Positions 91-56,950 of a DNA stretch of 64,000 nucleotides are shown here, in pieces. Position numbers and translations under genes: made by a program. The stretch covers positions 323,300 to 387,299 of the forward strand of contig JABHSE010000004.1 in NCBI GenBank assembly GCA_018697035.1, written 5' to 3'. The notes below the pieces were generated by a model that was not told where the DNA came from, searched no databases, and saw only the letters and a list, made by a program, of their open reading frames with translations. The DNA is from an archaeon. GTDB taxonomy: Archaea; Nanobdellota; Nanobdellia; Pacearchaeales; GW2011-AR1. The stretch's first letter is position 1. Every line of letters starts with the position of its first letter.

Positions 91-142
91 AATTCAAACC
101 TCAATTGCCCAAATCGTGAATCCAAAAGATTCACTCTCCCAC

Positions 143-190
143 TCCTAACCCCTAACACCCAACTCCCAACTTGAAAATCCCCGATTTTCA
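143..190. repeat. Heptamer element with hairpin at the 3' end of the oxidase gene
   Basis: Four C-rich heptamers (TCCTAAC, CCCTAAC, ACCCAAC, TCCCAAC) occupy 143-170. After one base comes a perfect 8-bp hairpin, TGAAAATC-CCC-GATTTTCA (172-190). The stop codon of the minus-strand oxidase gene lies inside the right arm. The arrangement matches the other heptamer elements of the window. Confidence 0.75.
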
Positions 191-1303: not shown

Positions 1304-2028
1304 CTTTTCAAACCTCGCAATTTACCAAGAACAAAACTCGAAAACTCAATCGACTTATCACTCGCCGATTTCAAATTAGCATAACAAAGCCCACAAGGAG
1401 AAATAATCTTGCCGACCTCAGAATCAAAACTCTCAACTCTACTCTTAGCAATATCCTTAGCTAACTTTTCAAAATTCGCCCTCACTCCACCCCCCCCACC
1501 ACAACAAAGCGCACCCTCTCGATTAAACCTAGACTCAACAATCCTTCCACCCAACATTTCAATCACCTCCCTCGGCTCATCATAAATCCTCGAATACCTT
1601 CCCAAATGACAAGGATCATGATAAGCCACAACCTCACTCTCTCCCTTAAATCTCAACCCCTTCTTCTTCAGCCCTCGCAAAATAACAACCGTCGCATGTT
1701 CACAAGGAATATCCCAATCCCGAACCAACTTAGGATAAACATCATTAAACGTATGTAAACACGACGGACAATTGCTAATAATCTTCGTAATCCCTTTATC
1801 CTTAAAAATCTTCAAATTCTTTTCCGCCAACTTCTTAACATCCTTCTTATACCCAGCATTCAAAACTGGCAACCCACAACAAACCGCATCATCCAACATA
1901 ACAAAATCAATCCCCAACCGATTAAAAATCTCCTTATAATTCTCAAACTCCTCCTTCAAAACCCCCTTAGTAAGACATCCAGGATAATAAAGAACCTTCT
2001 CGCTTTTTAACCAAGAAAAAATTCCCAT
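1300..2028 (-). CDS. CCG-domain Fe-S oxidoreductase subunit (GlcF/HdrD/LutA-like)
   Basis: The 242-residue protein has two cysteine-rich CCG modules: YYPGC (about 14) with CCGLP (about 50) and NCPSC (about 87), then HDPCHLGR (about 137), CCGGGGG (about 173) and SPCGLC (about 209). Such modules bind an iron-sulfur cluster in heterodisulfide reductase HdrB/D and in glycolate and lactate oxidase subunits. No N-terminal ferredoxin domain is present, so it resembles LutA more than full GlcF. It is the electron-transfer partner of the overlapping flavoprotein gene. The start overlaps the stop of an upstream leader ORF (TAATG), which suggests translational coupling. Confidence 0.85.
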   Translation of the reverse strand: MGIFSWLKSEKVLYYPGCLTKGVLKEEFENYKEIFNRLGIDFVMLDDAVCCGLPVLNAGYKKDVKKLAEKNLKIFKDKGITKIISNCPSCLHTFNDVYPKLVRDWDIPCEHATVVILRGLKKKGLRFKGESEVVAYHDPCHLGRYSRIYDEPREVIEMLGGRIVESRFNREGALCCGGGGGVRANFEKLAKDIAKSRVESFDSEVGKIISPCGLCYANLKSASDKSIEFSSFVLGKLRGLKR

Positions 2029-2201
2029 TATAAATTAGTCCTCCAGTTAGCCGAACCCCGACCAGGCGCAAGCCGTCCCACCAGCGAAGCGTCCCACCAG
2101 CGAAGCGTCCCACCAGCGAAGCGTCCTTGAGGAACAAAATTCCTCACGCATCCAGGATAATAAAGAACCTTCTCGCCTATTAACCAACTCATCAATCCCA
2201 T
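2028..2201 (-). pseudogene. Truncated duplicate 5' end of the CCG gene, now a coupled leader ORF
   Basis: An ATG at 2201 opens a 57-codon frame whose first 18 residues (MGLMSWLIGEKVLYYPGC) nearly match the N-terminus of the adjacent CCG protein. The frame then enters a hairpin and the 16-mer array, translating as repeats of GRFAGG and TLRWWD type, and ends at TAATG, overlapping the start of the intact gene. A TATA-like stretch (about 2226-2240) lies 25-35 bp upstream. I read this as a partial tandem duplication whose copy was broken by the repeat element and kept as a leader. Confidence 0.6.
2060..2146. repeat. 16-mer array with hairpin (copy R1)
   Basis: A variant unit (ACCAGGCGCAAGCCGTCC) is followed by three units of ACCAGCGAAGCGTCCC (2080-2127, the last ending in T). 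A perfect 7-bp hairpin, TGAGGAA-CAAAA-TTCCTCA (2128-2146), follows with no gap. The same array occurs in the agmatinase and gatD genes and between gyrB and the next gene. Confidence 0.8.
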
Positions 2202-4029: not shown

Positions 4030-4106
4030 AGCAGACTTAGGCGAAGCGCAAGGTTGCAAAGCGTACAAGCGTACGTGAGCGTTCTCGCAACGAAGCATAA
4101 GTCGCT
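4030..4106. repeat. Three-stem hairpin element (copy A)
   Basis: Nested complementary segments GACTTA/TAAGTC, GGTTGC/GCAAC and GCGTAC/GTACGT (loop AAGC) form one long hairpin. A copy about 85-90% identical in its inner 49 bases lies at 49984-50048, and a structurally similar one with different stem sequences at 24740-24824. Here it begins 12 bp past the stop of the truncated dph2-like gene. It could be a transcript 3'-end structure, a processed small RNA or a dispersed repeat. Confidence 0.6.
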
Positions 4107-4117
4107 AGAAATTAAAA

Positions 4118-13911: not shown

Positions 13912-14225
13912 TTCTTTTTCCTCCTAACAACCTTTTTCTTGCCCGATGAAGATCGAACTTTGGTTCGGATTTTAGAGGGTACACTATTACGTGTCTTAGC
14001 CTTTTTCTTCATCTCAGCAACAGTCTTCTTCAGTTTCTCATCCGTAGTTACCAAAATAGGAAACGCTTGAGCATCAAAACCGCAATCATCACACTTCATC
14101 TTCGGCATAACTCCAAACAAATTCCCAAGCCCAAAAACATATCCAACATTAGTAGATTTACACTTCGGACAAAACGAAACTCGAACATCCTTACCGCACC
14201 CGTCACAACACGAACAGCTACTCAT
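13908..14225 (-). CDS. Zinc-ribbon protein upstream of gyrA
   Basis: The 105-residue protein has two cysteine pairs, FCPKCKS and MKCDDCGFDA, plus an N-terminal SSCSCCDGCGKD, so one or two zinc sites. A hydrophobic, glycine-containing stretch (VFGLGNLFGV) separates them. The lysine-rich tail contains the peptide TRNSVPSK..TKV.SSSGK encoded by the 58-bp palindromic element, also found in Kae1. The start at 14225 matches a short overlap with the upstream gene; the stop overlaps gyrA. Role unknown. Confidence 0.7.
   Translation of the reverse strand: MSSCSCCDGCGKDVRVSFCPKCKSTNVGYVFGLGNLFGVMPKMKCDDCGFDAQAFPILVTTDEKLKKTVAEMKKKAKTRNSVPSKIRTKVRSSSGKKKVVRRKKK
13938..13995. repeat. 58-bp palindromic element in the zinc-ribbon gene (copy F1)
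   Basis: About 52 of 58 bases match the copy in kae1 (18175-18232), in the same + strand orientation. The central hairpin here is CGAAC-TTTG-GTTCG; in the other copy the outer pair is swapped (GGAAC/GTTCC), so pairing is kept. A second inverted repeat, ACAC...GTGT, is near the right end. It is read in the same frame in both genes. Confidence 0.8.
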
Positions 14226-14424: not shown

Positions 14425-14453
14425 CCCAAAACCCCCTCAGCAGCCAAGCCCCT

Positions 14454-14537
14454 ACCAGCGAAGCGTCCCACCACCGACCAGCGAAGCGTCCCACCAGAGC
14501 AAGCCCAGCTTGCCGTCCATGAAGTCAAAGACTTCAT
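14454..14537. repeat. 16-mer-type array with hairpin at the 3' end of gyrB (copy R2)
   Basis: Two units containing ACCAGCGAAGCGTCCC and a variant unit with an internal hairpin (GCAAGC-CCA-GCTTGC, 14499-14513) are followed without a gap by the perfect hairpin ATGAAGTC-AAA-GACTTCAT (14519-14537). The gyrB stop codon lies in the right arm. Confidence 0.75.
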
Positions 14538-17850: not shown

Positions 17851-18900
17851 CTATTCCCACAAAACCTCAACCTCATCCGTCCTCTCTCTAGGCGCAATAT
17901 CCACACTCCCATAATCCAAAGTCCCCAACCCAGTCTTCCAAATCTTCAACCCCAAATACCCAATCATCGCCCCGTTATCAACCAACAAACTCTTCTCCGG
18001 AACAAACAACTTACAACCCCTCTCCTCACACATAATCCGACACATCTCAACCAACCGAGTATTACAAGCAACTCCACCCCCAAGCAACAACTCGCTCTTC
18101 CCCGTATGAGCAAGCGCCCTCTCCGCAACCTCAACCAACATAGCAAAAACATTCTCCTGCAAAGCAAAAGCCAACTTGCCCGATGAAGACGGAACTTTAG
18201 TTCCCAATTTAGAGGGTACACTATTACGTGTCAAAATCAAATTCCGAATCTTAGTCTGAATCCCAGAAAAACTAACATCCATCCCCTTAACCGAATAAGG
18301 CAACTCTAAAAGCTCCCCGTCATATTCACTGGCCAACTCCTCAATCTTAGGCCCCGCAGGAAACCCCAACCCCATAGTCCTCCCAATACTATCAATAAAA
18401 TTCCCAACACCTAAATCCAATGTCTCCCCAAAAATCCTATACCTACCACCCTCAAAAGCAACAACTTGAGTATTCGCACCCGAAGCATAAAGCATAACCG
18501 GATCTTTAGCCCCGACCGTTTCCCCAATAACCAGATGAGCAACACAATGATTAACTCCAACCAATGGAACATCCAACCTCTTAGCCAACCTCTTAGCAAA
18601 ATCCATCCCCTCAAGCAAACAAGGCGCAAGCCCAGGAGCATTAGAAAAAGCAACAACTTCTATATCCTCCTCCCCAATCCCAGCATCTCCCAACGCCCGA
18701 CTCCAAACTCCACTACTCGTCTTTTTATGATGCGCCCGAACCTCCATCGGAATCATCCCACCCTCACTCGTCGTATACGAATCTTTAACATTCGCCAATA
18801 TCTTACCATTCAGGTCGGGGTCACCAGAGTCATCCTTTGAGGACAAAATCCCAACCCCAAAGGTATGCGCAGTAGATTCAATCCCAACAATACATTTCAT
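17851..18900 (-). CDS. kae1: tRNA threonylcarbamoyladenosine protein Kae1
   Basis: This ASKHA-fold catalytic subunit of the KEOPS complex makes t6A37 in tRNAs. It shows GIESTAHTFGVGI at the start, metal-site histidines in EVRAHHKKT, GVNHCVAHL and the phosphate loops near LYASGANTQV and GGGVACNTRL. At 349 residues it is slightly long: about 20 residues (TRNSVPSKLGTKVPSSSGK) are inserted between NLIL and LAFALQENVF, encoded exactly by the 58-bp palindromic element. The ATG at 18900 lies 26 bp from a TATA box and is divergent from disA. No fused Bud32 kinase is present. Confidence 0.95.
   Translation of the reverse strand: MKCIVGIESTAHTFGVGILSSKDDSGDPDLNGKILANVKDSYTTSEGGMIPMEVRAHHKKTSSGVWSRALGDAGIGEEDIEVVAFSNAPGLAPCLLEGMDFAKRLAKRLDVPLVGVNHCVAHLVIGETVGAKDPVMLYASGANTQVVAFEGGRYRIFGETLDLGVGNFIDSIGRTMGLGFPAGPKIEELASEYDGELLELPYSVKGMDVSFSGIQTKIRNLILTRNSVPSKLGTKVPSSSGKLAFALQENVFAMLVEVAERALAHTGKSELLLGGGVACNTRLVEMCRIMCEERGCKLFVPEKSLLVDNGAMIGYLGLKIWKTGLGTLDYGSVDIAPRERTDEVEVLWE
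18175..18232. repeat. 58-bp palindromic element inside kae1 (copy F2)
   Basis: Second copy of the element at 13938-13995. It contains GGAAC-TTTA-GTTCC as central hairpin and ACAC...GTGT near the right end. It adds about 19 codons to a highly conserved gene without breaking the frame. Confidence 0.8.
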
Positions 18901-23944: not shown

Positions 23945-24729
23945 AACTCTACACAACCAACCGAATCAACGCACTAGGACTAAAGGGCCCAGAACAAATC
24001 CCAGAAGCAATAAAACAATTCCTAAAAATACCAACAACTCACATACAAGTAGACAACGGAAATATCCAAGAATCAGAACAAATCCTATACAACAAAGCCA
24101 AACAAATCTTCACCAACTCGGGAGACAAAGTCTCCCTCCCACTACCCACCAGCGAAGCGTCCCACCAGCGAAGCGTCCCACCAGCGAAGCGTCCTGAAAA
24201 CCTGAAGATTTTCATTGGCGGCGACCACTCCATAACCTACCCACTATTCAAAGCTTTTCAAAAACAACATGAAAACCCCTTCCTGATAATCTTCGACGCC
24301 CACGCTGATTGCATGTCACCTCAACAAGAACCAACCCACGAAGAATTCTTAAGAGCGATAATAGAACAAGGCTTCCCTTCAAATAAAATCATCCTAATAG
24401 GCGTAAGAAAAATAGAACCCGAAGAACAAGAATTCCTGGACGCCCACAAAATAAAAATCATACAAGATCCAAAACAAATCCTAAGCTTAACAAAAGATAA
24501 AGACCTCTACATCTCAATCGACATCGACGCACTAGATCCCAAATCCGCACCAGCCGTAAACTACCCAGAACCAAACGGCCTAATAGAAAAAGAATTCTTC
24601 CACATCTTCGAACAACTCCTAAGACAAAACCCCAAGGCAATAGACATAGTAGAAGCAGTTCCACAAAAAGATCAAGACAACAAAACCCTAAAGCTAATCA
24701 TAAAAATAATCAAAGAAACAACTCTTTAA
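23941..24729 (+). CDS. speB: Agmatinase / ureohydrolase family enzyme
   Basis: The dimanganese site is visible in GGDHSITYP, FDAHADC and SIDIDALDP. The enzyme removes urea from agmatine or an aminopropylated agmatine, supplying the polyamine used for hypusine. It is 262 residues, last in the dys-decarboxylase-agmatinase operon. The segment before GGDHS carries about 16 residues (TSEASHQRSVPPAKRP) encoded by three 16-mers, so a surface loop has grown by repeat insertion. Confidence 0.92.
   Translation: MKLYTTNRINALGLKGPEQIPEAIKQFLKIPTTHIQVDNGNIQESEQILYNKAKQIFTNSGDKVSLPLPTSEASHQRSVPPAKRPENLKIFIGGDHSITYPLFKAFQKQHENPFLIIFDAHADCMSPQQEPTHEEFLRAIIEQGFPSNKIILIGVRKIEPEEQEFLDAHKIKIIQDPKQILSLTKDKDLYISIDIDALDPKSAPAVNYPEPNGLIEKEFFHIFEQLLRQNPKAIDIVEAVPQKDQDNKTLKLIIKIIKETTL
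24120..24214. repeat. 16-mer array flanked by hairpins inside the agmatinase gene (copy R3)
   Basis: Three units of ACCAGCGAAGCGTCCC lie at 24148-24195. On the right TGAAAA...TTTTCA (24195-24214) pairs; the right arm encodes the native strand before GGDHS. On the left is a further perfect hairpin GGGAGAC-AAA-GTCTCCC (24120-24136). Three units equal 48 bp, so the frame is kept. Confidence 0.8.
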
Positions 24730-48702: not shown

Positions 48703-49956
48703 ATGAAAACAAAAACATTCCAACCAGGAGATTTAATACAATTAAAAACAAAATCAAAAACCTGGAAAGGCCACGCCCTCCAATCTCACGACTCAGAAAT
48801 AATTCTCCTAAAGCTTCAATCAGGCTACAACATAGGGATAAGAGAATCCGAAATCTTAGACGCAAAAATACTAGAGCCCCACCAGCGAAGCGTCCCACCA
48901 GCGAAGCGTCCCACCAGCGAAGCGTCCCACCAGCGAAGCGTCCCACAAAAGCTACCTAATGTAGCTTTTGTCATTACCGGCGGAACAATCTCTGCAAGAA
49001 TAGACCCAAAATCAGGAGGAACATTCCCAACAAACGCCAAAGGCCTCCTAGAAATCGCACCAGAGCTAAAAGAAATCTGTAATCCAATAATCGAAAACCC
49101 ATTCATGAAACTCTCAGAAGACATGGACCCAAAAGACTGGAAAACAATCGCAGAAATTTGCAAGAAACATTTAGACGACCCAAAAATATCAGGAATCATA
49201 GTAACCCACGGCTCAGACACCTTGCATTACACAGGCGCAGCTCTGTCCTACTTCCTCCAAGACCTAGGAAAACCCGTAGCACTAACATTCTCTCAAAGGT
49301 CAATCGACCGAGCATCAACAGACGCAAACCTAAACCTAATATGCGCCGCAAAATACGCAACATCAGATATAGCCGAAGTCGCAATAATCGGACACGAAAC
49401 AGAAAACGACTCATCATGTATTGCAATCCAAGGAACAAAAGCAAGAAAAATGCACACATCAAAAAGATCAACCTTCAAACCAATTAACTCAGAACCAATA
49501 GCGAGAATAACCAGAGATTCCTTTGAGATTCTAAAAGAATTCAATGCAAGAGATGATTCAAGAAAAACCAAACTAGACACTAAATATCAAAACAAAGTAA
49601 CCTCAATAAAAGCCCACCCAGGGCGAGACCCCGCGATAATAGATTTCTACCTCCAACAAGGATACAAAGGCTTAGTAATCGAAACAACCGGACTCGGACA
49701 CACACCAGCAAAAAGCTCAGAGCACAACTGGCTCCCAAAAATCAAAAAAGCAATAGAAGCAGGGATGACAATCATAGCAACCGCACAAACCATTAATGGG
49801 AACCTAAACCCAAACGTCTACTCCGCAGGTCGAGATCTCCAAAAAACCGGAATCATATTCTCAAACCTAACAACAGAAACAGCCTTAGTAAAATTAGGCT
49901 GGGTACTCGGACATAAGCAATGGAACAAGTCCAAAAAAATGAAGGAAAACCTTTAA
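48703..49956 (+). CDS. gatD: Glu-tRNA(Gln) amidotransferase subunit D
   Basis: GatD is the asparaginase-like subunit that releases ammonia for GatE. An N-terminal barrel (FQPGDLIQLKTKSKTWKG) is followed by the asparaginase domain with VITGGTISARID and VTHGSDTLHYTGAALSY. It is 417 residues. The linker between the domains (about 62-85) is encoded by four 16-mers and reads HQRSVPPAKRPTSEASHQRS. A TATA-like box is about 25 bp before the ATG. Confidence 0.95.
   Translation: MKTKTFQPGDLIQLKTKSKTWKGHALQSHDSEIILLKLQSGYNIGIRESEILDAKILEPHQRSVPPAKRPTSEASHQRSVPQKLPNVAFVITGGTISARIDPKSGGTFPTNAKGLLEIAPELKEICNPIIENPFMKLSEDMDPKDWKTIAEICKKHLDDPKISGIIVTHGSDTLHYTGAALSYFLQDLGKPVALTFSQRSIDRASTDANLNLICAAKYATSDIAEVAIIGHETENDSSCIAIQGTKARKMHTSKRSTFKPINSEPIARITRDSFEILKEFNARDDSRKTKLDTKYQNKVTSIKAHPGRDPAIIDFYLQQGYKGLVIETTGLGHTPAKSSEHNWLPKIKKAIEAGMTIIATAQTINGNLNPNVYSAGRDLQKTGIIFSNLTTETALVKLGWVLGHKQWNKSKKMKENL
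48881..48971. repeat. 16-mer array with 11-bp hairpin inside gatD (copy R4)
   Basis: Four perfect units of ACCAGCGAAGCGTCCC (48881-48944) are followed directly by ACAAAAGCTAC-CTAAT-GTAGCTTTTGT. The right arm encodes the native VAFV strand of the asparaginase domain, so the left arm looks like an inverted copy of host sequence. Confidence 0.85.
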
Positions 49957-49983
49957 TAAAATAAAAATAATTCTTAACAAATT

Positions 49984-50048
49984 AAGACTAGGCGCAAGGT
50001 TGCGAAGCGTACATTGGTACGTGAGCGTTCTTGCAACGACGTATTAAT
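49984..50048. repeat. Three-stem hairpin element (copy B)
   Basis: Stems GGTTGC/GCAAC and GCGTAC-ATTG-GTACGT match copy A, with about 43 of 49 inner bases identical; the outer stem is weak. It fills the gap between the convergent gatD and the small membrane gene. Confidence 0.6.
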
Positions 50049-50057
50049 CATTAAAAA

Positions 50058-50321
50058 TTACTTCTTAGATACATCCCAACTAATCGGATACCTCTTCGCT
50101 ACAAAATTGTAGATTGCAATTATAACAACCATACTCAAATATCCAATAACTCCACCAAGAACCGGAGCCGTAACAAAAGCCGAAACAGCAGTAACATTAA
50201 TTCCCTGCGTAGCTAAAACATCTCGCAAACTCCATTGCAAAATACCAGCAATAAGATACATCACCAAAGCCAAGGCTCCAAAAAACACAGCCGAATTATA
50301 ATTAATCTTTGTTAATTTCAT
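50058..50321 (-). CDS. Small membrane protein with Shine-Dalgarno start
   Basis: About 87 residues with two hydrophobic spans (SAVFFGALALVMYLIAGILQ and LGGVIGYLSMVVIIAIYNFV). The start at the second M (MKLTKINYN) follows GGAGGTG by 4 bp; the upstream GTG would lie within that site. One of few genes here with a clear ribosome binding site. Confidence 0.68.
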   Translation of the reverse strand: MKLTKINYNSAVFFGALALVMYLIAGILQWSLRDVLATQGINVTAVSAFVTAPVLGGVIGYLSMVVIIAIYNFVAKRYPISWDVSKK

Positions 50322-50383: not shown

Positions 50384-51790
50384 ATGAAACATAATTACAA
50401 AACTCTCGGACTAAAATCCGGCCTAGAAATACATCAACAGCTAGACACTCACAAACTATTCTGCAACTGCCCCTCTCTTCTCAGGCAAGACAAACCACTG
50501 CGAGAAATAAAAAGAACCCTGAACCCAGTCATCGGAGAAACAGGCATAGTAGATATAGCAGTAGAACACGAAGCAAAACAAAACAAAAATTTCACATACC
50601 AAGTCTACGACACAAACTGCCTAGTCGAAACAGACGAAGAACCGCCACATCTCATAAACCAAGAAGCCCTAAAAACCGCACTACAAATAGCACACCTACT
50701 CAACTGCAAAATATTCCCTACAACTCAAATCATGCGAAAAACCGTAACCGACGGCTCAAACACTTCAGGCTTCCAAAGAACAGTCCTCCTAGCCCACGAC
50801 GGCCACATAACAATATCATCCGGGAAAAAAATCGCAATCGACTACCTCATGCTCGAAGAAGACTCCGCCAGAAAAGCAACTCCGAACTCCGAATACCCAA
50901 CTCCGAACAATCCAATTTTCAAATTGGATCGCCTTGGTATCCCCCTGGTAGAAATCGCAACCGGACCCCACATGAATACCCCAGAAGAAATAAAAGAAGC
51001 CGCACTAAAACTCGGCGAAATCCTAAGAGCCTGCAAAGTCAAAAGAGGCATCGGAACAATCCGTCAAGACGTCAACATCTCAATCAAAGGGTCAAAGCGA
51101 GTCGAGATAAAAGGATTCCAAGATCCAAAGATGATGACAAAAACAATAGACCTCGAGATAGAAAGGCAAATAAAATGTATTAAAGAAAAAACCTGCACAA
51201 ACGAAGTCCGAAACGCTCTCCCTAATGGAACAACCGAATTCCTAAGGCCAATGCCAGGAGCCGCACGAATGTATCCCGAGACCGATCACCCTCTCCTAAA
51301 AATATCACGAGATCTAATCAACGAAACCAAACGAGACCTTCCAAAGCTCCAATCCGAAAACAACTCCTACCTAAAAGAATTCGGCCTCAACCCAGAACTA
51401 ATCAAATTAATCCTAAAGAAAAACAAACTAGAAGACTTCAAAACCTTAATCCACGAACATAACAACCCAAACCTAGTCGCAAAAATGCTAACCCTATTCC
51501 AAACCAAACCTGAAACATCAATCCACAACATCGAAGAAATACTAGAGAAAATCGAAAACAAAGAGATTCCAGAAACCGACGCCAAAACAATAATGCAAAA
51601 AATATCCCAAGGTATACCACTAAAGGAAGCCATAAAAAAATCCGATATCGACTTAGAATCCGAGACACAAAAAATCATAAAACAAAAACCAGGTCTCTCT
51701 CAAGGCGCCTATATGGGACTTCTAATGGGAAAATTCAAAGGCCAAATCTCAGGTAAAGAAATAGCTGACATTCTAAAAAAATTAATCTAA
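50384..51790 (+). CDS. gatE: Glu-tRNA(Gln) amidotransferase subunit E, short form
   Basis: GatE converts Glu-tRNA(Gln) to Gln-tRNA(Gln) with GatD. It has LKSGLEIHQQLDT, CNCPSLL, EEDSARKA, LDRLGIPLVEIATGP, RGIGTIRQDVNISI and LPGGT-type PNGTTEFLRPMPGAARMYPETD. At 468 residues it is about 150 shorter than usual: the AspRS-like (GAD) insertion before the NGTTEFLRP segment is missing. A heptamer-hairpin element encodes ATPNSEYPTPNNPIFKL. Leaderless start, TATA 27 bp upstream. Confidence 0.95.
   Translation: MKHNYKTLGLKSGLEIHQQLDTHKLFCNCPSLLRQDKPLREIKRTLNPVIGETGIVDIAVEHEAKQNKNFTYQVYDTNCLVETDEEPPHLINQEALKTALQIAHLLNCKIFPTTQIMRKTVTDGSNTSGFQRTVLLAHDGHITISSGKKIAIDYLMLEEDSARKATPNSEYPTPNNPIFKLDRLGIPLVEIATGPHMNTPEEIKEAALKLGEILRACKVKRGIGTIRQDVNISIKGSKRVEIKGFQDPKMMTKTIDLEIERQIKCIKEKTCTNEVRNALPNGTTEFLRPMPGAARMYPETDHPLLKISRDLINETKRDLPKLQSENNSYLKEFGLNPELIKLILKKNKLEDFKTLIHEHNNPNLVAKMLTLFQTKPETSIHNIEEILEKIENKEIPETDAKTIMQKISQGIPLKEAIKKSDIDLESETQKIIKQKPGLSQGAYMGLLMGKFKGQISGKEIADILKKLI
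50881..50929. repeat. Heptamer element with palindrome inside gatE
   Basis: Four heptamers (TCCGAAC, TCCGAAT, ACCCAAC, TCCGAAC; 50881-50908), one base, then ATCCAATTT-TC-AAATTGGAT (50910-50929). The right arm encodes the native KLDRLGIP strand. Confidence 0.8.
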
Positions 51791-53047: not shown

Positions 53048-56000
53048 CTAAACCCCACCACAAGGAAGACAAGACCAAGTACCTCTCGAGCAAATACAAT
53101 CACAACAACCACTACCACATCCACCAGTTTGTTTCGTATCACCATGCACACAGTCAGGAACAGGATCACAATCCTTAGTCCCATCAATAAGTCTCGTATT
53201 CTCACAATTACTTGTCTGAATAAGGCCATAATACTTACAAACGGTATTAGCGGCAGGGGTCCAAGTAGTATCAATACAAGGAGATGATGCTTCCTCAACA
53301 AAAACAGGAGTCTCACTCACCGAAACAGAACTCGCCGAAACAACTTCCGTCTCAGCTACCTCTTCGTCGTAAACAGTTATTATATGCGTCACCAAAACTT
53401 CATCTGTATCTACAATAGAAGTCAAATCAACATTCTTTTCACCTTCCTCACTCCATAAAACAAATACCGGATCTTTATCCTCAAACTCAAATTCATATAA
53501 ACTCTCCGCAAAATTTATTTTAGTCACAGATTTAAAATAATTAGTTTTTTCAACAAATAGTTTTTCAGTATAATATGCAGGTTTTCTTGCAAACGATTTT
53601 TCTTCACCTTCCAAGAGCGCCGTATTCAAAAAACTCTGAGACCAACCAACTGTTGGGATAAGCGAACTCCAAAAAGATTTTTCAGCTCCCCAATTAAAGA
53701 AAATAGTTTGCATCTTAACCACCTCTTCGGCATGCATTTCATATTCTTCCGGCGTATCAAAGGGATCATCCTTTTGCATTGGGCCACCAATTTCAAGACT
53801 CCAAATAGGTTTACCAGACGGCAAAATAGATTCTACGGCATCGAGTTCACTTTCAATTTCTGAGGAATTCCCATAGTAATGCACGTCAATAACATCATAA
53901 TAATCACTATAATCATCTAACATTTCTTTTACATATTTACTTTTTGGACTACTAGCGTTACCAACAATCGCACCCAAAACGACAGTCATCTCAGGATCAG
54001 CAGCCTTAATCGTTTCATATGATACCTGTATATATTTCCCAAAATCTTCCGTTACATTATCCCAGTTATCATCACGCCACTCCACAAGTCGTGATATATG
54101 TTTAATAGAAGAAGGTGGACTACCAAACCACTGCCAGAATGGCTCATTGCCTAATTGAATATATTTTACTTTATATTCCAACCCCTCATAATCATCTATT
54201 CCATCATTATCAATACCTTCAATGAGATCTGCAAGGTCCTCCTTATATGCTGTAATGTTACTCGGAATTCCACCGATACCCCATCTCCCAGAAATATTTG
54301 AAAAGTCAATATTATTCAAAACCTTATTTCCCCATTTTTCGTTATTGCTAGTTGGGGTCACAGTTAGAACAAGTTCTATACCATCATCTTGATATATTTT
54401 AAGCCATTTTGTTACGAAGGACTCACCGCTAAAATGATACATTCCTCTAATCAAGGCAATATCAAGGTTTCTAGTATCTTCTGTTCTGTCCCAAATTGCA
54501 TGCAAACCAAATCGATCAATACCTCTCTCACAATCCTCCGGACAATCCTCATCAACCCCACAAATCCCATCCCCACAAACTACCCCTCCCCTCTTACTAA
54601 CACTCAACAAATTCTCACTCTTAATTTCATCACCATCAACCACAGCACCAAAATAATATTCAGGGTCTCCACCAAGAAGCCCATCCCTCTGCCATTCCGC
54701 AACCCAGCTAGTAGAAGCTCTACCGCCATCAAACACCACAGAAACAGGATCATTCTGGATATAATCATCACCAAGTAAATCATCTTCCCAAACACTAAAA
54801 TCAACACTCAACCCGTCACACTTTTCACTTCCCTCAACAACCAAAGACACAACTTCACCCTCAACAGCTTCTGTTTCTGACCAACTTGCAGATATAAGAT
54901 TACAAGATGTTGGCTCTGCACTTGTCTCTTCAACAAAGATAGGCGAATCACCTACCGGCACAGAACTCGCCGAAACAACTTCCGTCTCAGGCATCTCCTC
55001 GCCATCAACAGTCACAAGATGCGTCACAAGAACATTAGATGTCTCAAGATAAGAAGACAAATCCACACCTTTATCTCCATCCTCACTCCATAAAACATAA
55101 ACAGGATCCTTATCCTCAAACAAAAATTTGTAAACAAATTCATCAATTGTCTCAACCTCTACAAATCCATCAAGCTTCTCCACCATTAATTTATATGTAT
55201 AAAAAATCGGCTTTTTTCGCACTACAGGCGGATCTACAAACTCATCAGCGCCCAATATCCCCACAAACCTCCACACAGGAAGATCATATTCCTTCTGATC
55301 AGTGGTCCACGAAATATAAATCTGATCCATTCCACTGGCAAAAGCATATACAGCCTTTTTAGTATAATATCTCGACTGTTCTGCTTCAACAAGATTCCTT
55401 GCAGCTAAGTAATTGGGATTTGAACTATCATGAAGAATTCTGTAATATGTTTCATAATCTGAGTAATATGTCGAAGGTAAATCCAAAATACCCATATAAT
55501 CCGGACCAGACATTGCATCCTCAATTATTATTGACTTATCAGTATATTTTCTTATATAATCCACTGTTCCATTGGCCTCATTCCAGTGCCTATTAGCATG
55601 TATACTTACAGCATCATATTTTCCATATTGTATAAAATATTCAAAAGCTTCCAGGGTCCAATTTGCCCATTCGTACAAATCAACATCTCTATCCTTTAAT
55701 TCAAGTAATCTGTCATCAAATTCTTCTTCGCTCGGGTTATCAATAAACAGCCCACCAAAGGTCCAACCCGAACCCATTATTATTACATCAGGGTTAGCCC
55801 TTTTCGCTGCATTATATGCCAAATTATGCATTTCAACAAACTGCTCTTTTGTTCCCTCAAACTTTTCTATAGAGGGTTCTGTATCAATTTGATAATAAGT
55901 TATATTTCCATTATATCTTTTAACAATATATTTAACCCATTCCTCGAATAACCCTACATCCTTAGGAAACTGAGTAACATCCGCACCACCCTTTCGCTCA

Positions 56001-56950
56001 TCTGCACAGGAAAGCAAATTCACCTGCAAAGTTCTATTATACTCCCAATATTTCTTTTGCATCTCATCTAAATAATTTAAATCTTCCCAAGTTTTTGATA
56101 CATTTTCAAAAAAACAAGTTGCAAAAGTTCCTATAATACCATCATCTATTTCCGAAAATATTTGTGGAAAGTCTATATCAGGATTCAAGAACGCACCATC
56201 AATTCCAAAACGCTTTGGAGAAGATCCACAATCTTTCAAACAACTTCCAGAGGTCTCATTTCCATTACAAATCCCGTCCCCACAAAAAATTGGTTCTTTG
56301 GGACAATCAATCGGACAATTGAATACGGTTTCTTCGGCACCACAAACCTCATCTCCACAAAACCCTATATTAATCTCGCAATCTTCAGGGCATCCAGCAG
56401 ACACAGAAGAGCTCTCTTCCCCAGCATCACAAACCCCATCTCCGCAATAACTAGGTTCTCTTGGACAATCTTCACTGCAATTTATGAAATGTTCATTAGC
56501 ATCACAAACGCCATCACCACAAAACCCTATATTAATCTCACAATCCTCAGGGCAACCACCAGCTCCCGAAGAAGAATCATCCTCTCCAACATCACAAATA
56601 CCATCTCCACAATAACTTGGCTCCTCTGGACAATCTTGAGAGCAATTTATTGGACTCTCTCCAGCATCACAAACATCATCTCCGCAGAATCCTACAGTGT
56701 TACTATAACCTGACGAGCCTGAAGAAATAGAAAACTCACTAAAACTCGCAACATCAGAATCCAAATCAATATCCTCCAAACTCAACACACAATCCGCCGC
56801 ACAACTCTCCAAACTCTCCCCATCAGAACAAACATCGTCCCCACAAACTTCATCATCCCCTATATAATACATAGCAACAAATATAGCAACAGCAACAAGC
56901 ACAATAATACCAAGAACAAATAACAAACTCCCAAAACCTTTTTTCAACAT
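53048..56950 (-). CDS. Giant anchored protein: cysteine repeats and two glycoside-hydrolase-like barrels
   Basis: An N-terminal anchor (residues 5-29) is followed by seven CGDGxCxxxE-type cysteine repeats to about 240. Barrel 1 (about 245-600) has a candidate acid in YQIDTEPSI and nucleophile in IIIEDAMSG. A beta domain follows (LMVEKLDGF...VLWSEDGDKGVDL), an Ig-like domain, and an eighth cysteine repeat. Barrel 2 (about 815-1150) has IQLGNEPFW and WSLEIGGPM, matching clan A glycosidases such as GH39. A second copy of the beta domain precedes a cysteine-rich end. At 1300 residues it is the largest gene here. Substrate unknown. Confidence 0.8.
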   Translation of the reverse strand: MLKKGFGSLLFVLGIIVLVAVAIFVAMYYIGDDEVCGDDVCSDGESLESCAADCVLSLEDIDLDSDVASFSEFSISSGSSGYSNTVGFCGDDVCDAGESPINCSQDCPEEPSYCGDGICDVGEDDSSSGAGGCPEDCEINIGFCGDGVCDANEHFINCSEDCPREPSYCGDGVCDAGEESSSVSAGCPEDCEINIGFCGDEVCGAEETVFNCPIDCPKEPIFCGDGICNGNETSGSCLKDCGSSPKRFGIDGAFLNPDIDFPQIFSEIDDGIIGTFATCFFENVSKTWEDLNYLDEMQKKYWEYNRTLQVNLLSCADERKGGADVTQFPKDVGLFEEWVKYIVKRYNGNITYYQIDTEPSIEKFEGTKEQFVEMHNLAYNAAKRANPDVIIMGSGWTFGGLFIDNPSEEEFDDRLLELKDRDVDLYEWANWTLEAFEYFIQYGKYDAVSIHANRHWNEANGTVDYIRKYTDKSIIIEDAMSGPDYMGILDLPSTYYSDYETYYRILHDSSNPNYLAARNLVEAEQSRYYTKKAVYAFASGMDQIYISWTTDQKEYDLPVWRFVGILGADEFVDPPVVRKKPIFYTYKLMVEKLDGFVEVETIDEFVYKFLFEDKDPVYVLWSEDGDKGVDLSSYLETSNVLVTHLVTVDGEEMPETEVVSASSVPVGDSPIFVEETSAEPTSCNLISASWSETEAVEGEVVSLVVEGSEKCDGLSVDFSVWEDDLLGDDYIQNDPVSVVFDGGRASTSWVAEWQRDGLLGGDPEYYFGAVVDGDEIKSENLLSVSKRGGVVCGDGICGVDEDCPEDCERGIDRFGLHAIWDRTEDTRNLDIALIRGMYHFSGESFVTKWLKIYQDDGIELVLTVTPTSNNEKWGNKVLNNIDFSNISGRWGIGGIPSNITAYKEDLADLIEGIDNDGIDDYEGLEYKVKYIQLGNEPFWQWFGSPPSSIKHISRLVEWRDDNWDNVTEDFGKYIQVSYETIKAADPEMTVVLGAIVGNASSPKSKYVKEMLDDYSDYYDVIDVHYYGNSSEIESELDAVESILPSGKPIWSLEIGGPMQKDDPFDTPEEYEMHAEEVVKMQTIFFNWGAEKSFWSSLIPTVGWSQSFLNTALLEGEEKSFARKPAYYTEKLFVEKTNYFKSVTKINFAESLYEFEFEDKDPVFVLWSEEGEKNVDLTSIVDTDEVLVTHIITVYDEEVAETEVVSASSVSVSETPVFVEEASSPCIDTTWTPAANTVCKYYGLIQTSNCENTRLIDGTKDCDPVPDCVHGDTKQTGGCGSGCCDCICSRGTWSCLPCGGV

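What the first reader, a model, noticed from the sequence alone, without database searches (positions are those of the whole stretch)
48945..48971. Hairpin arms look like inverted copies of host coding sequence
In gatD the right arm GTAGCTTTTGT encodes the conserved VAFV strand just before TGGTIS, so it is native; the left arm is its inverted copy. The same holds for gatE (KLDRLG strand), agmatinase (strand before GGDHS) and the stop-codon ends of gyrB and the oxidase gene. So the element does not bring its hairpin; it seems to make one from the target. A fold-back synthesis step at a 3' end followed by addition of repeats would produce this.
Basis: partly seen in the sequence, partly recalled or inferred. 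Interest (0 to 1): 0.88.

Follow-up and report, generated by a model that had tools for sequence, protein, structure and literature searches.

The report
Self-copied hairpins capped by repeats
In a lineage of tiny archaea, conserved genes carry perfect DNA hairpins in which one half is the gene's own sequence and the other half a mirror copy of it, followed on the same DNA strand by short GT-rich tandem repeats, which points to a recurrent copying accident (or a dedicated end-extending step) that folds a new DNA strand back on itself.

Summary
The genome is a Ca. Pacearchaeota archaeon. In three related genomes (G000, G008, G011; about 940 kb sampled) C-rich tandem arrays carry a perfect short-loop hairpin of at least 8 bp at their 3' edge 25 times (0.6 expected) and at their 5' edge once. 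The side follows the extreme GC skew, not gene direction. Orthologue comparison shows the distal arm is native coding sequence and the arm next to the array is a new inverted copy. Clean cases: pheS (REMQDTFY[L/I]K invariant, two different fold-backs), a KefB-like gene (HKLLY-stop, 12 bp), nifS (SPFK, different hairpins in two species) and gatE. Species differ at the same site, so the hairpin is not carried. No Y1 transposase was found. gatD itself is the least clean example; the agmatinase hairpin is not above chance. Best explanation: fold-back (template-switch) synthesis on the G-rich, probably leading, strand, then GT-rich repeat synthesis and re-entry on the template. Hairpins made by template switching are known; their regular, polar coupling to tandem-repeat addition inside genes appears new.

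The parts
48878..48944 (+). array of the 16-nt unit CACCAGCGAAGCGTCC inside gatD (about 4.3 copies, in frame)
48945..48955 (+). array-side hairpin arm ACAAAAGCTAC in gatD: inverted copy, inner CTAC probably native priming stem
   Evidence: hairpin-less relatives also encode K/N-L-P-N here
48956..48960 (+). loop CTAAT
48961..48971 (+). array-distal arm GTAGCTTTTGT, codons V-A-F-V before the conserved ITGGTIS; native position in gatD
48703..49956 (+). gatD open reading frame, stays open through array and hairpin
50878..50929 (+). gatE: 7-nt array (50878-50908) and hairpin ATCCAATTT tc AAATTGGAT (50910-50929); distal arm and loop native (FKLD), left arm new
   Evidence: G011 has a different array and an 11-bp version, the other genus members have neither
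134..190 (+). array and hairpin TGAAAATC ccc GATTTTCA (172-190) at the stop codon of the 371-aa oxidase-like gene (gene on - strand)
   Evidence: array-less-hairpin G010 keeps the distal arm CCGATTTTCA only
14443..14537 (+). 16-nt units, small hairpin and hairpin ATGAAGTC aaa GACTTCAT (14519-14537) at the gyrB stop codon (gene on - strand)
   Evidence: different hairpins at the same stop in G008, G011 and G006
2058..2146 (+). 16-nt array with 7-bp hairpin TGAGGAA caaaa TTCCTCA (2128-2146)
1976..2034 (.). direct repeat flanking the 2058-2146 array (second copy 2149-2207): partial copy of a gene start, consistent with re-entry before the start point
   Evidence: 83% identity
24145..24214 (+). 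agmatinase: 16-nt array in frame, then a weak 6-bp hairpin TGAAAA cctgaaga TTTTCA (24195-24214) before FIGGDHS
   Evidence: hairpin not above chance

Best explanation
Each site records a replication-linked fold-back (intrastrand template-switch) event on the G-rich strand, which by skew convention is the nascent leading strand. The new strand's 3' end pauses in a gene, folds back with a short loop on a few self-complementary bases, and copies its own last 8-17 nt. The hairpin end is then extended by short GT-rich tandem units (7, 8 or 16 nt, with different favoured units in different genomes), and synthesis re-enters the original template near, beyond or before the starting point. Shown: distal arm native and array-side arm not; fixed polarity relative to skew; species-specific hairpins at the same site; different array units. 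Inferred: order of steps, leading-strand identity, the polymerase, and the origin of the repeat units.
For: Hairpins of at least 8 bp at array 3' edges versus 5' edges: 25 versus 1 in G000, G008 and G011, plus 1 versus 0 in G003, about 0.6 expected. Clean native/copy arms in pheS, KefB-like gene and nifS, gatE, oxidase-like gene; homology to G008 starts in loop or distal arm in most one-sided cases. Same polarity in genes coded on either strand. All 17 copies of the 16-nt unit on one strand. Variable re-entry: replaced linker in gatE, near-clean insertion in nifS, flanking duplication at 1976/2149. In E. coli template switching favours the leading strand (PMC8794818).
Against: The repeat unit is not explained by simple fold-back: the 16-nt unit recurs in several species at unrelated sites. 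Many arrays have no detectable hairpin. Some loci have several hairpins with unrelated stems between constant spacers. In gatD the left arm is partly native in sequence. Leading-strand identity rests on skew sign only.
Confidence: 0.7

Rival explanations
1. A mobile palindromic element (REP or MITE type) that carries its own hairpin and inserts into genes.
For: The 16-nt unit is dispersed, has a CGTC-like motif next to the hairpin as CGTC-type REPs do (PMC3733652), and lies in frame in genes as Rickettsia palindromic elements can.
Against: Stems differ at every site and match the local gene's codons; unrelated 7- and 8-nt arrays show the same hairpin link; no Y1 transposase in G000, G008, G009, G011.
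Confidence: 0.05
2. The arrays insert next to hairpins that already existed in the gene.
For: At gatD relatives without the array share part of the left arm at the amino-acid level.
Against: Orthologues without arrays lack the array-side arm in pheS, the KefB-like gene, nifS and gatE.
Confidence: 0.05
3. Selection for an RNA or protein feature (terminator, regulatory stem) maintains hairpins with compensatory changes.
For: Several hairpins sit at stop codons; arms co-vary between species.
Against: Hairpins lie in mid-gene as well as at ends, on both gene orientations; the centre of the gatD hairpin differs between species, so pairs are not homologous; polarity follows DNA strand.
Confidence: 0.04
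4. A telomerase-like or other trans-templated enzyme adds the GT-rich units to hairpinned or broken 3' ends (dedicated end-healing).
For: Favoured units differ by genome (7-nt in G000 and G011, 7- and 8-nt in G008), G-rich strand only; one 16-nt family shared by several species; resembles interstitial telomeric insertions (PMC2246262).
Against: No reverse transcriptase domain in G000, G008, G009 and only an interrupted one in G011; no template locus outside the arrays found. Genomes are 79-84% complete.
Confidence: 0.12
5. Assembly or amplification artefact (fold-back chimeras).
For: Fold-back chimeras are a known artefact of strand-displacement amplification (own knowledge); reads could not be checked.
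Against: Found in separately deposited MAGs; reading frames stay open across inserts; one event is shared between species and decayed in one (L151:5247 / L127:237); polarity follows genome skew.
Confidence: 0.03

Closest known systems
Template-switch mutations that create perfect hairpins (Monttinen and Loytynoja, PMC8794818; quasipalindrome mutagenesis)
   Same: One event makes an inverted copy of adjacent sequence with a short loop; leading-strand bias is reported in E. coli.
   Different: There no tandem array is attached; here the copy is regularly bordered on one side by GT-rich repeats and the polarity is nearly absolute.
Interstitial telomeric repeats inserted at breaks in mammals (PMC2246262)
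   Same: Short G-rich tandem units appear in one step at unrelated sites, with no change, deletion, addition or duplication of flanks.
   Different: No inverted copy of the target; telomerase is available there and no intact reverse transcriptase was found here.
Tandem repeats of Borg elements (PMC9879509)
   Same: Archaeal, fast-evolving tandem repeats in and between ORFs, kept in frame, in a replicon with strong skew.
   Different: Borg repeats are A-biased and on extrachromosomal linear replicons; the word hairpin occurs once in that paper and no hairpin border is described in the passages read.
CGTC-tagged REP palindromes (PMC3733652)
   Same: Short palindromes with a CGTC-like tag in many places of a genome.
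   Different: REP stems are family-conserved; here each stem is the local gene's own sequence, and most arrays lack the tag.
Pol theta snap-back synthesis and templated insertions in end joining (reviews PMC5042397, PMC9962433; detail from own knowledge)
   Same: A 3' end folds back on minimal homology and copies itself.
   Different: Break repair would be expected to give both orientations; here one strand only. Presence of a HelQ or Pol theta-like enzyme was not tested.

Membership tests
Template-switch (fold-back) mutation | New arm is the reverse complement of adjacent pre-existing sequence | tested here: met
   pheS, KefB-like, nifS, gatE orthologues
Template-switch (fold-back) mutation | New arm absent from relatives that lack the event | tested here: met
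   gatD only in part
Template-switch (fold-back) mutation | Occurs during replication with strand preference | tested here: inconclusive
   Polarity follows GC skew; fork direction not mapped
REP / RAYT palindromes | Stem sequence conserved among copies | tested here: not met
   Stems differ at every site
REP / RAYT palindromes | Y1 (IS200-like) transposase in the genome | tested here: not met
   PF01797 absent in G000, G008, G009, G011; controls positive
Telomerase-type repeat addition | Reverse transcriptase gene | tested here: not met
   PF00078 absent in G000, G008, G009; interrupted in G011; genomes 79-84% complete
Telomerase-type repeat addition | Template RNA carrying the repeat complement | tested here: inconclusive
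   All exact and 1-mismatch copies of the 16-nt unit lie in array/hairpin loci; incomplete genome
Borg tandem repeats | Located on a linear Borg replicon of Methanoperedens | tested here: not met
   Genome is Ca. Pacearchaeota by relatives

The most novel reading that the evidence does not exclude
Some Pacearchaeota have a dedicated, strand-specific 3'-end extension system: stalled nascent ends are capped by self-templated hairpins and extended with telomere-like G-rich units specified in trans, then rejoined. This would be an archaeal end-healing pathway that writes new disordered segments into conserved proteins.
Probability: 0.12. Interest if true: 0.92.

Novelty: new variant of a known kind. 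Interest (0 to 1): 0.76.

Why it matters
It gives many comparative examples in which filled and empty sites can be read side by side, so fold-back synthesis in an uncultivated archaeal lineage can be studied from sequence alone: the hairpin marks strand, direction and start point of each event. It may connect extreme GC skew with rapid growth of disordered protein segments in these small genomes, and it raises the question of what adds GT-rich units to hairpinned ends without an evident telomerase or transposase.

Tried and rejected
Carried hairpin: rejected, stems match local codons. Rfam: only a tRNA in the window. Y1 transposase and reverse transcriptase searches negative or interrupted. 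Source locus for the 16-nt unit: all copies are in such elements. RNA covariation for gatD: hairpin centre differs by 1.5 nt between G000 and G008/G011, so pairs are not homologous. Literature searches for Pacearchaeota palindromes and for DPANN tandem repeats with skew found nothing on point. A first orthologue listing printed some loci in the wrong orientation and was redone.

Full report
WHAT IS THERE. The window is part of a 394-kb contig (C3) of an 809-kb genome whose named relatives are Ca. Pacearchaeota MAGs. At 48945-48971 a perfect 11-bp hairpin with a 5-nt loop follows four copies of a 16-nt unit in gatD. The same arrangement, a C-rich tandem array then a hairpin, occurs at gatE (7-nt array), the gyrB stop codon, the stop codon of the 371-aa oxidase-like gene and 2058-2146 in the window, and at many sites elsewhere in the genome. 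All 17 copies of CCAGCGAAGCGTCC (one mismatch allowed) lie on one strand. GC skew is extreme and of one sign across most of C3, C2 and C4 in the sampled stretches, and reversed on C1, which may simply be the contig's orientation.

IS IT MORE THAN CHANCE. Tandem Repeats Finder arrays were taken on the C-rich strand, and the best perfect hairpin (loop 2-6 nt) near each edge was compared with random positions. Hairpins of at least 8 bp: G000, 10 at the 3' edge, 1 at the 5' edge, 0.15 expected; G008, 5, 0, 0.08; G011, sampled more widely after the rule was set, 10, 0, 0.39, with stems up to 17 bp (some of its loci had been seen before); G003, 1, 0, 0.00. In total 26 versus 1 (binomial p about 4e-7). 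Array filters differ slightly; the asymmetry is the same in all. Arrays are frequent in G011 (5.0 per 10 kb), G008 and G000, rare in G003 and G009, and nearly absent in the low-skew genomes G005, G013 and G014.

WHICH ARM IS NATIVE. pheS: REMQDTFY[L/I]K is present in every genome in which the gene end was found. In G011 GAC ACT TTT TAC ATC AAG (DTFYIK) is followed by GGA, then CTTGATGTAAAAAGTGT, then AGGGAAT-type repeats, then VLAAVKKAHEGG. In G000 TAC CTC AAA (YLK) is followed by a TTTGAGGT copy and GGAGTT-type repeats. G003 and others read straight through. KefB-like gene: CAC AAA TTA CTC TAT TGA (HKLLY-stop) is followed by GTAATTTGTG and G-rich sequence; the other close orthologues that reach this end stop at the same place with no such hairpin. 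nifS: at SPFK, G000 and G008 carry different fold-backs and different repeats, while G002, G003, G009, G010 and G015 have neither. gatE: FKLD or YKLD is native; the left arm occurs only in G000 and G011, which have different arrays. For the oxidase-like gene, G010, which has no hairpin there, keeps ...CCGATTTTCA at the stop without the left arm. In the automated G000 versus G008 comparison, homology starts inside the loop or distal arm in most one-sided cases.

THE FLAGGED LOCUS. gatD is the least clean case. G000, G008 and G011 each have a hairpin complementary to their own codons (one mismatch in G011), with the centre in a different place in G000. But hairpin-less relatives also encode K/N-L-P-N here, so part of the left arm is probably native; CTAC/GTAG may have been the priming stem. 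The agmatinase hairpin is too short to count.

MECHANISM. Read on the G-rich strand, 5' to 3', the sites are: native gene, short loop, inverted copy of the last 8-17 nt, GT-rich units, return to the gene's other side. This is what fold-back synthesis at a growing 3' end would leave. It is independent of gene direction: the array is N-terminal of the native arm in gatD and gatE, C-terminal in pheS, nifS and the KefB-like gene. Re-entry is variable: replaced linker in gatE, near-clean insertion in nifS, apparent duplication at 1976-2034/2149-2207. By skew convention the G-rich strand is the leading strand, where template switching is favoured in E. coli (PMC8794818). Order of steps, strand identity, enzyme and source of the repeat unit are inferred or unknown.

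COMPARISON. Hairpins created by template switching are known (PMC8794818). Insertion of G-rich tandem units with variable flank changes is known for interstitial telomeric repeats (PMC2246262). Fast-evolving tandem repeats in archaeal ORFs are known from Borgs (PMC9879509). The combination, a self-templated hairpin regularly joined to tandem repeats with one polarity, was not found in the papers searched, which is a limited open-access library. REP/RAYT membership fails on stem conservation and transposase. Telomerase-like action is not supported by an intact reverse transcriptase gene in the four genomes tested, which are 79-84% complete.

OPEN POINTS. The 16-nt unit recurs across species at unrelated sites, which suggests templating or copying between sites. 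Some loci consist of several unrelated hairpins separated by a constant spacer (G008 L144:8340-8480, TAGAGAGAC on the coding strand; G000 around L156:11786, GGGTGGTTC), whose stem origin is unexplained. Many arrays have no hairpin, perhaps through decay: the shared MKKLAS-stop hairpin (L151:5247 / L127:237) has lost pairing in G008.

Noticed in passing
whole window; sampled stretches of G000 C1-C4: Extreme GC skew (about -0.2 to -0.58) that does not flip along most of a 394-kb contig, whichever strand the genes are on.
   Followed up: partly
G000 C3:120000-185000 (L152-L154); similar patch in G008 C6 about 100000-150000: Patch without skew and without C-rich arrays; its ORFs look like an acquired defence or mobile island (ATPases, helicase, PAPS-reductase-like, integrase-like) by eye.
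   Followed up: partly
window 13938-13995 and 18175-18232; L150 near 17137: 58-nt repeat CTTGCCCGATGAAG...GAGGGTACACTATTACGTGTC with a variable small hairpin inside, lying within ORFs; a separate palindromic family.
   Followed up: no
window 4032-4114 and 49978-50060: 83-nt dispersed repeat (78% identity) rich in small hairpins with GCGAAGCG.
   Followed up: no
G008 L144:8340-8480; G000 L156 around 7263 and 11786: Runs of short hairpins with unrelated stems separated by a constant 8-9 nt spacer directly after stop codons.
   Followed up: partly
window 1976-2034/2149-2207; L022 (C3:53838): Partial second copies of a gene start on the far side of an array, as if synthesis re-entered the template upstream.
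   Followed up: partly
window 56337-56674: 162-165 bp tandem repeat inside a 1300-aa ORF (53048-56950, - strand).
   Followed up: no
G011 C21:3292-3914 (L186, L187): Interrupted reverse transcriptase gene.
   Followed up: no
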